From a virus, in IMG/VR virus record IMGVR_UViG_3300030104_003342, positions 1-22,285 of that record: a stretch of 22,285 nt of DNA; one strand, written 5' to 3'. The translations under genes were made by a program, and so were the position numbers. The notes under the pieces were generated by a model. It did not search any database. It had not been told where the DNA came from and saw only the letters and a list, made by a program, of their open reading frames with translations. Numbering within the stretch: position 1 is the stretch's first letter; each line of letters starts with the position of its first letter. This document shows positions 1 to 19,103 of this stretch, in pieces.

Positions 1-131
1 TCTTCAAGCGTGAAGAGAACGTGCATCGACTAGATGGTGAGAGACGCTTCTCTCGTAATACATCACTAGCGTCCAGTATCCCTACGGGATAAAGATATAG
101 TCAGTGCCATTAGAAATAATGGAATCACATG
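1..131 (+). ncRNA. Group I self-splicing intron, 3' catalytic half (5' part lies outside the window)
   Basis: All three + frames contain stops here (11-13, 31-33, 90-92, 117-119), so it is not capsid coding sequence. The bases fold as a group I core. GACTA (28-32) pairs perfectly with TAGTC (98-102) as P7, and the second strand sits in the hallmark AAGATATAGTC motif (92-102). TATCCC-TAC-GGGATA (77-91) is a perfect P8-like hairpin. GATG 33-36/CATC 61-64 enclose a GAGAGA/TCTCTC stem (39-44/49-54), as in P7.1/P7.2 of phage IA introns. CCATTA-GAAA-TAATGG (107-122) is a GNRA-capped P9. TCTTCA-AGCG-TGAAGA (1-16) is a further hairpin, perhaps part of P6. The conserved terminal G is placed at 131 by the downstream exon; 132 or 135 is possible. 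The motif is established knowledge; the subgroup and exact 3' splice site are inference. Confidence 0.8.
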
Positions 132-230
132 GATGTGATACTAGGTCGTTTAAGTTGCGGTTGCGATTACGTAAACCCTGCAGCTGCAGTTGAATTGCAT
201 ATTGGCGCAACAGCACCATCTGCATTCTAA
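132..230 (+). CDS. Major capsid protein, 3' exon (C-terminal ~32 residues, partial)
   Basis: After the intron end the frame reads DVILGRLSCGCDYVNP..., then AAAVELHIGATAPSAF and TAA at 228-230. It aligns by eye with the T7 gp10A C-terminus (DQIIAKYAMGHGGLRPEAAG...), and it sits directly before tail tubular protein A, where gp10 belongs. In T7-like phages this protein forms the icosahedral shell. The 5' exon is outside the window, so full length and intron phase cannot be checked. Alternatively it could be an unrelated short ORF starting at ATG 129; the similarity plus synteny makes capsid more likely. Confidence 0.66.
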   Translation, partial: DVILGRLSCGCDYVNPAAAVELHIGATAPSAF

Positions 231-281: not shown

Positions 282-899
282 ATGGCTTTTCCTACCACTA
301 ATGCTTCAACAGAATTACCTGCAATAAATCAAATACTAATGGCTTGTGGTCAGGCTCCAGTTACCACTTTAGATGAAACCAACCCTGACGTTGCGATTGC
401 TTATCAGACCTTACTAGAGATATCTAGAGAGGTTCAAAGTGAAGGCTGGACTTTTAACAAAGAGCCTCATTATGAGATGACACCTGACACAGTTACTAAT
501 CATATTGTCATCCCAAATAATGTATTACAAATAGATTTAAGTTCATCTAATGCTTCTAATAAAGAAGTAGTTAGAAGAGGAGGTAAATTATACGATAAAT
601 ATAACCACACCTACGAGTGGACAGATGGTCCTATCGATTGCGATATCGTATGGCTATTTGATTGGGTAGACCTACCACGCCCAATACAGGACTACATAAC
701 AGCTAGAGCAGCCACCATAGTTTCTAGTCGAATTATTGGAGATCAAACTCAATACCAAATGCTCCAACAGAAAGAGGCATATATGAGAGCAATGGCTGTT
801 GAATATGAATGTAATCAAGGTGATTATTCCATGTTCGGTAAGCCAGATGGCTCACAACCTTATGTCAGCTATGAACCTTACAAAGCACTTATGAGATAA
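282..899 (+). CDS. Tail tubular protein A (gp11-like, head-to-tail adaptor ring)
   Basis: 205 residues, close to T7 gp11 (196). In T7 this protein forms the gatekeeper ring between the portal and nozzle protein gp12 and also contributes to fibre attachment. Family-typical features are the helical N-terminus (LPAINQILMACGQAPV, about residues 13-28), the central segment around WTFNKEPHYEMTP (about 56-68), and the late helical region DLPRPIQDYITARAATIVSSRI. There is no signal or membrane segment. The start is the first ATG after the terminator T-run; no Shine-Dalgarno is visible, since the leader is T/A only. The stop overlaps the next gene as TAATG. Identification rests on length, sequence character and exact synteny. 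Confidence 0.9.
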   Translation: MAFPTTNASTELPAINQILMACGQAPVTTLDETNPDVAIAYQTLLEISREVQSEGWTFNKEPHYEMTPDTVTNHIVIPNNVLQIDLSSSNASNKEVVRRGGKLYDKYNHTYEWTDGPIDCDIVWLFDWVDLPRPIQDYITARAATIVSSRIIGDQTQYQMLQQKEAYMRAMAVEYECNQGDYSMFGKPDGSQPYVSYEPYKALMR

Positions 900-18542: not shown

Positions 18543-18777
18543 GTATTACAGATCAAACCCTGCAGCTAGAAAGCGCAGGTTAAAACAACAAGCCAAATAC
18601 AACAAAACTAAAAAAGGTTTAGCTATACGAGTTAATGCTAATCGGTTAAATAGAGATCTTGGCACATACGGCAATGGTGACGGCAAAGATGCTGCTCACT
18701 ACAAAGGAAGTACAACAAGAGGAAGACTTCAATCTCCATCTACAAACCGTAAAAGCAGATTAAAAATTCGTACATGA
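18526..18777 (+). CDS. Basic small protein, unknown
   Basis: 83 residues, strongly basic: MASTAEYYRSNPAARKRRLK, then QQAKYNKTKKGLAIRVNANR, then NGDGKDAAHYKGSTTRGRLQ and a RKSRLKIRT tail. The signature AEYYRxNPxARKRRLKQQ and YGNGDGKDAxH recurs in marine T7-like phages next to the terminases; the function is not known to me. Basic composition suggests DNA contact or a virion role. It overlaps TerS by 17 bases and the HNH gene by 4 (ATGA). Confidence 0.7.
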   Translation: MASTAEYYRSNPAARKRRLKQQAKYNKTKKGLAIRVNANRLNRDLGTYGNGDGKDAAHYKGSTTRGRLQSPSTNRKSRLKIRT

Positions 18778-19103
18778 CACCTTTACTACCAAACCCTGAT
18801 CACTATTTATTCAATCTAATAACCATGACAAGTCCTGACGCAAAACGTTTGTGGCGAAAAGCCATTAAGGAGAAATTCAATTGTCAATGTGTTTATTGCG
18901 GAAATAATTATGAACTACACCAACTTACGCTTGATCATGTCAAGCCACGAACTTTTGGAGGAGAAAGTATTACGAGCAATCTCGTACCCGCCTGCAGAAA
19001 ATGTAATCAGGGAAAAGGTAGCAATCCTTGGCGCGAATGGATGCGTCAAACATTCGGACATCAACCCACAAGAGAACAGATGATCCTTACACATATTAAT
19101 TAG
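18774..19103 (+). CDS. HNH endonuclease (small, stand-alone)
   Basis: 109 residues with a complete zinc-framed HNH module: C39-x2-C42, L53-D54-H55 with VKPR, N69 and C74-x2-C77-N78. In this family the His acts as general base and the metal is held by the Asp/His/Asn side chains, giving DNA nicking or cleavage. Either ATG 18774 (overlapping the upstream stop) or ATG 18825 (MTSPDAKRLW) may be used; the first 17 residues are outside the fold. Its place between TerS and TerL fits a packaging cofactor as in HK97-type gp74 or a free-standing homing nuclease; sequence alone cannot decide. Confidence 0.87.
   Translation: MTPLLPNPDHYLFNLITMTSPDAKRLWRKAIKEKFNCQCVYCGNNYELHQLTLDHVKPRTFGGESITSNLVPACRKCNQGKGSNPWREWMRQTFGHQPTREQMILTHIN

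What the first reader, a model, noticed from the sequence alone, without database searches (positions are those of the whole stretch)
1..131. Group I intron in the major capsid gene
The first 131 bases cannot encode capsid but contain the diagnostic AAGATATAGTC with a perfectly matched P7 partner (28-32/98-102), a perfect P8 hairpin, a P7.1-like extension and a GAAA-capped P9 leading to the exon. A self-splicing intron in the most strongly expressed late gene of a T7-like phage is unusual, and the missing 5' half may encode a homing endonuclease.
Basis: partly seen in the sequence, partly recalled or inferred. Interest (0 to 1): 0.82.

Follow-up and report, generated by a model that had tools for sequence, protein, structure and literature searches.

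The report
Group I intron splitting phage capsid gene
The first 131 bases are the back half of a small RNA that almost certainly cuts itself out of the capsid message of an ocean virus of cyanobacteria; related introns sit at about seven places in this same gene in other wild viruses and seem to move between viruses without carrying their own cutting enzyme.

Summary
Bases 1-131 are the 3' part (P6a to the terminal G131) of a group IA-type intron in the major capsid gene of a T7-like cyanophage: Rfam Intron_gpI matches 1-123, 36.5 bits, E 1e-7, cut off at the contig start. Capsid coding resumes exactly at 132, P-SSP7 codon 344. It is not held for this record, but 19 of 20 IMG/VR contigs found by pattern keep a joinable 5' exon at the identical site. 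Complete copies are 225-228 nt without an endonuclease, so that suggestion is not supported. Covariation is strong: 29 of 68 pairs change on both sides, 98% of cells paired. Relatives carry such introns at about six further capsid sites; 8 of 58 capsid genes chosen through the next gene have at least one. A relative 98.5% identical downstream (L006) lacks this intron. Introns are commonly 88-98% identical between phages whose capsid genes are about 69-77% identical: lateral spread, agent unknown. Splicing is untested. Capsid-gene group I introns are known from other phages.

The parts
1..131 (+). 3' part of a group I intron (about 131 of about 226 nt); 5' part beyond the contig start
   Evidence: cmscan RF00028 1-123; alignment with 12 complete introns at the same site; 92% identity to L094 intron
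1..16 (+). P6a hairpin (1-6 with 11-16)
   Evidence: alignment and pair counts, helix 7, five pairs with double changes
28..32 (+). P7 5' strand GACTA
   Evidence: pairs with 98-102 in all 13 sequences
33..64 (+). P7.1 (33-36/61-64) and P7.2 (39-44/49-54), the group IA extension
   Evidence: helices 9 and 10, eight of ten pairs with double changes
70..76 (+). P3 3' strand CGTCCAG (5' strand lies in the missing part)
   Evidence: helix 3 in relatives
77..91 (+). P8 hairpin (77-82/86-91)
   Evidence: helix 11; C-G to U-A compensatory change in the window against L094
98..102 (+). P7 3' strand TAGTC within AAGATATAGTC (92-102)
107..122 (+). P9 hairpin with GAAA loop
   Evidence: helix 12
131..131 (+). 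terminal intron guanosine (omega-G), 3' splice site 131/132
   Evidence: capsid homology begins at 132; same position is G in all aligned introns
132..230 (+). 3' exon of the major capsid gene, DVILGRLSCG...SAF and stop; P-SSP7 codons 344-375
   Evidence: blastn and tblastn to P-SSP7, S-B28 and others
132..154 (+). exon stretch next to the intron, 7 of 23 bases differ from L006 (all synonymous); possible co-conversion tract
282..899 (+). tail tubular protein A gene (gp11-like), used to find relatives
   Evidence: Pfam PF17212 E 2e-45

Best explanation
Bases 1-131 are the 3' portion of a compact (about 226 nt), endonuclease-free, group IA-type self-splicing intron inserted between codons 343 and 344 (P-SSP7 numbering, GGT|GAT) of the major capsid gene. 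In late mRNA the 5' exon end (..AGGGU) would pair with the internal guide to form P1 with a U.G pair at the 5' splice site; a guanosine bound in P7 attacks there, then the freed exon attacks after G131, helped by P10 pairing of exon GAUGU with intron ACAUU, restoring the capsid frame. An early in-frame stop (AAA TAA in most relatives) should end translation of unspliced RNA. The intron persists because splicing makes it nearly neutral, and it spreads laterally between cyanopodoviruses into the same site, with gain and loss frequent enough that near-identical phages differ in it. Shown here: sequence, structure, insertion site, covariation, presence/absence polymorphism, horizontal pattern. Inferred: splicing, the 5' part in this phage, and the agent of mobility (most likely an endonuclease acting in trans, less likely reverse splicing).
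For: RF00028 hit, 5'-truncated. Capsid homology begins at exactly 132. Relatives with an intron of 225-228 nt at exactly 343|344 with collinear exons. 98% of cells paired and 29 of 68 pairs with double changes, against 2-7 pairs for slid structures, including an exon-intron compensation in P1 (G-C to A-U, columns 5/25). The L094 full intron folds alone into P1-P6, P3, P8 and P9. Introns group by insertion site, and are commonly 88-98% identical where capsid genes are 69-77% identical. L006 is 98.5% identical downstream without this intron, and L259 lacks it with one difference in 132 exon bases around the site against L092.
Against: The 5' 95 nt and the 5' exon of this phage are not in the record. 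No RNA evidence of splicing. The Rfam score of the truncated piece is below the gathering threshold. The mover is unidentified: no endonuclease was found in the introns or beside the capsid gene.
Confidence: 0.95

Rival explanations
1. A degenerate, non-splicing intron relic or an assembly chimera: the intron 3' half was joined to the capsid exon by misassembly, or the element no longer splices and the gene is broken.
For: The contig ends inside the intron, and nearly identical L006 lacks it. Related introns at other sites could serve as a mis-join point.
Against: The junction is at the exact site used by 20 other loci; all window helices remain paired, with compensatory changes in P7.2 and P8 against L094; the adjacent exon still codes correctly and its differences from L006 are synonymous. 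L006 has no related intron at this site to cause a mis-join.
Confidence: 0.04
2. The missing 5' part holds a homing endonuclease gene, making this a self-mobile intron like that of LittleE.
For: Some phage group I introns carry one; a related intron in S-CBWM1 psbA does.
Against: All complete relatives at this site are 225-228 nt without room for such a gene, as are introns at the other capsid sites, 194-229 nt. No GIY-YIG or HNH_3 match in intron-bearing records.
Confidence: 0.05
3. Vertical inheritance with repeated loss, rather than lateral spread, explains the scattered distribution.
For: Introns group by site, and the minimum number of changes on the capsid tree (7 at site 343) cannot tell gain from loss.
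Against: Intron identity far exceeds capsid identity in most pairs, e.g. 98% against 77% (L091/L099), and the window intron is 92% identical to that of L094 although their tail-tube genes give no nucleotide alignment longer than 30 nt. Strong constraint on the RNA could explain part of this.
Confidence: 0.15

Closest known systems
Mycobacteriophage LittleE capsid-gene intron (PMC3706429)
   Same: Probable group I intron in a major capsid gene; 5' exon ends in U, intron ends in G; intronless close relatives
   Different: 819 bp with an HNH endonuclease gene; one site; splicing demonstrated by RT-PCR and protein sequencing
Cyanophage S-PM2 psbA group I intron with free-standing F-CphI (PMC5931967, PMC6083498)
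   Same: Cyanophage intron in a highly expressed gene, reported to interrupt the target of a separately encoded endonuclease
   Different: In psbA of T4-like phages; its endonuclease is encoded downstream, whereas none was found beside the capsid gene here
Terminase introns of Vibrio phages VnaP and vB_VpaM_R16F
   Same: Closest annotated nucleotide match, 75-76% over 6-116; same group I architecture
   Different: In terL of 129-139 kb phages; several introns in that gene, preceded by a gene annotated as GIY-YIG in VnaP
T4 td, nrdB and nrdD group IA2 introns (from general knowledge)
   Same: P7.1 and P7.2 extension, early stop after the 5' splice site (td), phage protein-coding gene
   Different: Carry endonuclease ORFs or remnants; sites in nucleotide-metabolism genes

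Membership tests
Group I intron (Rfam RF00028) | Covariance match to the group I core | tested here: met
   36.5 bits, E 1e-7, 5'-truncated, below gathering 50; complete same-site relatives 98-112 bits
Group I intron (Rfam RF00028) | P7 pairing and P3-P8, pseudoknotted core | tested here: met
   P7 invariant and paired in 13/13; P3 and P8 with double changes in relatives; the P3 5' strand is missing in the window itself
Group I intron (Rfam RF00028) | 5' exon ends in U forming U.G in P1 with the guide sequence | tested here: met
   In all 12 aligned relatives, with exon-intron compensation; not visible in the window
Group I intron (Rfam RF00028) | Intron ends in G (omega-G) | tested here: met
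   G131, exon homology from 132
Group I intron (Rfam RF00028) | GTP-dependent self-splicing | not testable with these tools
   needs RNA or in vitro transcription
Subgroup IA (P7.1/P7.2) | P7.1 and P7.2 between the P7 5' strand and the P3 3' strand | tested here: met
   33-36/61-64 and 39-44/49-54, eight of ten pairs covary
Mobile intron with its own homing endonuclease | Endonuclease ORF within the intron | tested here: not met
   Complete same-site relatives are 225-228 nt; the window's own 5' part is unseen
Trans-mobilised intron (S-PM2 psbA / F-CphI type) | Free-standing endonuclease near the target gene, cutting the intronless site | tested here: inconclusive
   None beside the capsid gene; the HNH gene in the window lies by terL and is also in intronless isolates; the Endonuclease VII search had no positive control

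The most novel reading that the evidence does not exclude
A family of compact, endonuclease-free group I introns specialises in the capsid gene of wild cyanopodoviruses, occupying about seven sites and moving between lineages by an endonuclease supplied in trans by co-infecting phages, or by reverse splicing; incomplete splicing at codon 343 could also yield a truncated minor capsid form.
Probability: 0.3. Interest if true: 0.7.

Novelty: new member of a known kind. Interest (0 to 1): 0.5.

Why it matters
The major capsid gene is a common marker gene and a highly expressed late gene. Introns in about one in seven of these genes (8 of 58 in a sample drawn through the neighbouring gene) would split gene calls and bias capsid surveys. 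Endonuclease-free introns that nevertheless spread laterally into several sites of one gene make the question of how such introns move directly testable, with intron-plus and intron-minus alleles in near-identical phages.

Tried and rejected
Exact 37-mer scan of viral contigs for the window's intron found no other record, so no longer copy of this phage was obtained. The genome-contig scan with GGTAAATNACATTGCC used too weak a pattern; its 118 hits in unrelated bacteria are what chance would give and were not used. The HNH gene at 18774-19103 was considered as the homing enzyme and rejected: it is 70-75% identical in intronless isolates and sits near terL. P-SSP2/P-SSP3 capsid genes with 186 extra bases were checked as a cultured example of an intron; the frame is open throughout, so this is an in-frame insertion. 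A covariance model of the family was not built: the one attempt had a structure string one character short, and it was not needed. The binomial p-value for the exon mismatch cluster (2e-8) is not relied on, because mismatches cluster elsewhere too (6 in 23 near 1410).

Full report
Observation. The window is a 22,285-base virus record whose sequence starts inside the feature. Infernal with Rfam 15 matches Intron_gpI over 1-123 with 36.5 bits (E 1e-7), model positions 118-253, flagged as cut off at the 5' end. It falls short of the gathering score (50) because the first 117 model positions are off the contig. The piece folds only moderately better than shuffles (z -2.15), so the case rests on homology and covariation, not on folding energy.

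Exon and insertion site. From base 132 the sequence is homologous to the end of the T7-like cyanophage major capsid gene (P-SSP7, S-B28 and others), in the frame DVILGRLSCGCDYVNPAAAVELHIGATAPSAF followed by a stop at 228-230. Downstream lie tail tubular proteins A and B and, further on, the terminase large subunit. The intron therefore ends with G131 and interrupts the gene between P-SSP7 codons 343 and 344.

Relatives supply the missing half. A pattern scan of IMG/VR for the P7 motif followed by the exon found 20 contigs. In 19 of them the 5' capsid exon ends at codon 343 (..CAGGGT or CAAGGT) and the 3' exon begins at codon 344, with 225-228 nt between; with L238, a second copy of the L087 contig, the chained tblastn table lists 20 such loci. 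Complete introns at this site score 98-112 bits, well over the Rfam threshold. Thus about 95 nt is missing from the window, and there is no room for an endonuclease gene.

Structure. An alignment of 12 complete introns plus the window, tested against a hand-written structure with P1, P2, P3, P4, P5, P5a, P6, P6a, P7, P7.1, P7.2, P8 and P9, gives 98.0% standard pairs, 29 of 68 pairs with a change on both sides and a covariation score of 0.290, against 0.028-0.056 for structures slid by 1-3 columns. The structure was drawn on one of the sequences, which favours it on percentage paired more than on double changes. P1 shows a compensatory change between exon and intron (G-C in eleven, A-U in L094). 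The complete L094 intron alone folds into P1, P2, P3, P4, P5, P6, P7.2, P8 and P9 as its minimum-energy structure. P10 (exon GAUGU with intron ACAUU) is my reading of the alignment and was not counted. P7.1 and P7.2 place it in subgroup IA by general knowledge.

A recurrently invaded gene. Mapping capsid exons in all 184 loci with a capsid match shows introns of 194-229 nt at further sites: 36|37, within codon 75, 117|118, near 186, near 209 and within 339. Several genes hold two: L006 and L045 (75 and 117), L100 (209 and 343), L105 (117 and 343), L070 (36 and 75). In loci chosen through the neighbouring tail-tube gene, hence without regard to introns, 8 of 58 full capsid genes have at least one. 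None of the cultured cyanopodoviruses listed among the capsid matches shows one, and the intron sequence finds no cyanopodovirus isolate among the listed hits.

Movement. L006 is 98.5% identical to the window over 5,765 bases from 132 on but has an uninterrupted site 343|344. Next to the junction 7 of 23 bases differ, all synonymous, against 1.4% afterwards; this is the densest cluster in the 5.7 kb, though another stretch reaches 6. It fits co-conversion of exon flank during homing, or a recombination edge in the lost upstream part; the truncated record cannot decide. L092 and L259 differ by presence of the intron with one exon difference in 132 bases around the site. Introns group largely by insertion site in a maximum-likelihood tree, the window being nearest to L094. 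Among phages with the 343 intron, intron identity is commonly 88-98% while capsid nucleotide identity is about 69-77% and third positions of conserved codons 50-65% identical; the window intron is 92% identical to that of L094 although their tail-tube genes barely align. At least 7 changes of state at site 343 are needed on the capsid tree. Lateral spread into one site is the best reading, with RNA constraint contributing.

Agent. No endonuclease was recognised in the introns or around the capsid gene in seven inspected loci (by reading the ORFs). GIY-YIG and HNH_3 searches of intron-bearing records are negative; the Endonuclease VII search is uninformative because its control was silent. The HNH gene in the window is conserved in intronless isolates. 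Many records are fragments, so a distant endonuclease is not excluded. By analogy with the S-PM2 psbA intron and F-CphI, an enzyme acting in trans is my first guess.

Known or new. Group I introns in phage capsid genes have been reported for Tuc2009 and LittleE, the latter shown to splice (PMC3706429), and a free-standing endonuclease is tied to the intron in cyanophage psbA (PMC5931967). Searches of the open-access library held here turned up no report of capsid introns in cyanopodoviruses, which does not exclude one elsewhere. I file it as a new member of a known kind, with an interesting multi-site, endonuclease-free distribution.

Noticed in passing
L096 record, G010:20596-20837 (L430 1597-1838): A second group I intron in the same phage interrupts what looks like the ribonucleotide reductase small-subunit gene, after ..MRTVSADISRD.
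   Followed up: partly
L002 2134-3992; L003 2199-4227: terL of Vibrio phages VnaP and vB_VpaM_R16F is broken by three (VnaP) or four (R16F) group I introns over the Rfam cut-off and is annotated as several separate 'terminase large subunit' genes.
   Followed up: partly
L006 2934-2988; L096 3431-3483; L100 1830-1885 (minus strand): A Glutamine-II riboswitch aptamer lies a few hundred bases upstream of the capsid gene in three intron-bearing cyanopodoviruses.
   Followed up: no
L428 1001-2314 (P-SSP2), L429 1001-2314 (P-SSP3): Capsid protein with an in-frame insertion of about 60 residues relative to P-SSP7, open frame, not an intron.
   Followed up: partly
window 18774-19103: Small HNH endonuclease gene upstream of terL, 70-75% identical in many cyanopodovirus isolates; probably packaging-related rather than homing.
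   Followed up: partly
L100, intron at capsid codon 209: This intron goes from the P7 motif to the exon (GTCCAAATTG|CAATAT) with hardly any P9, an unusually short 3' end.
   Followed up: no
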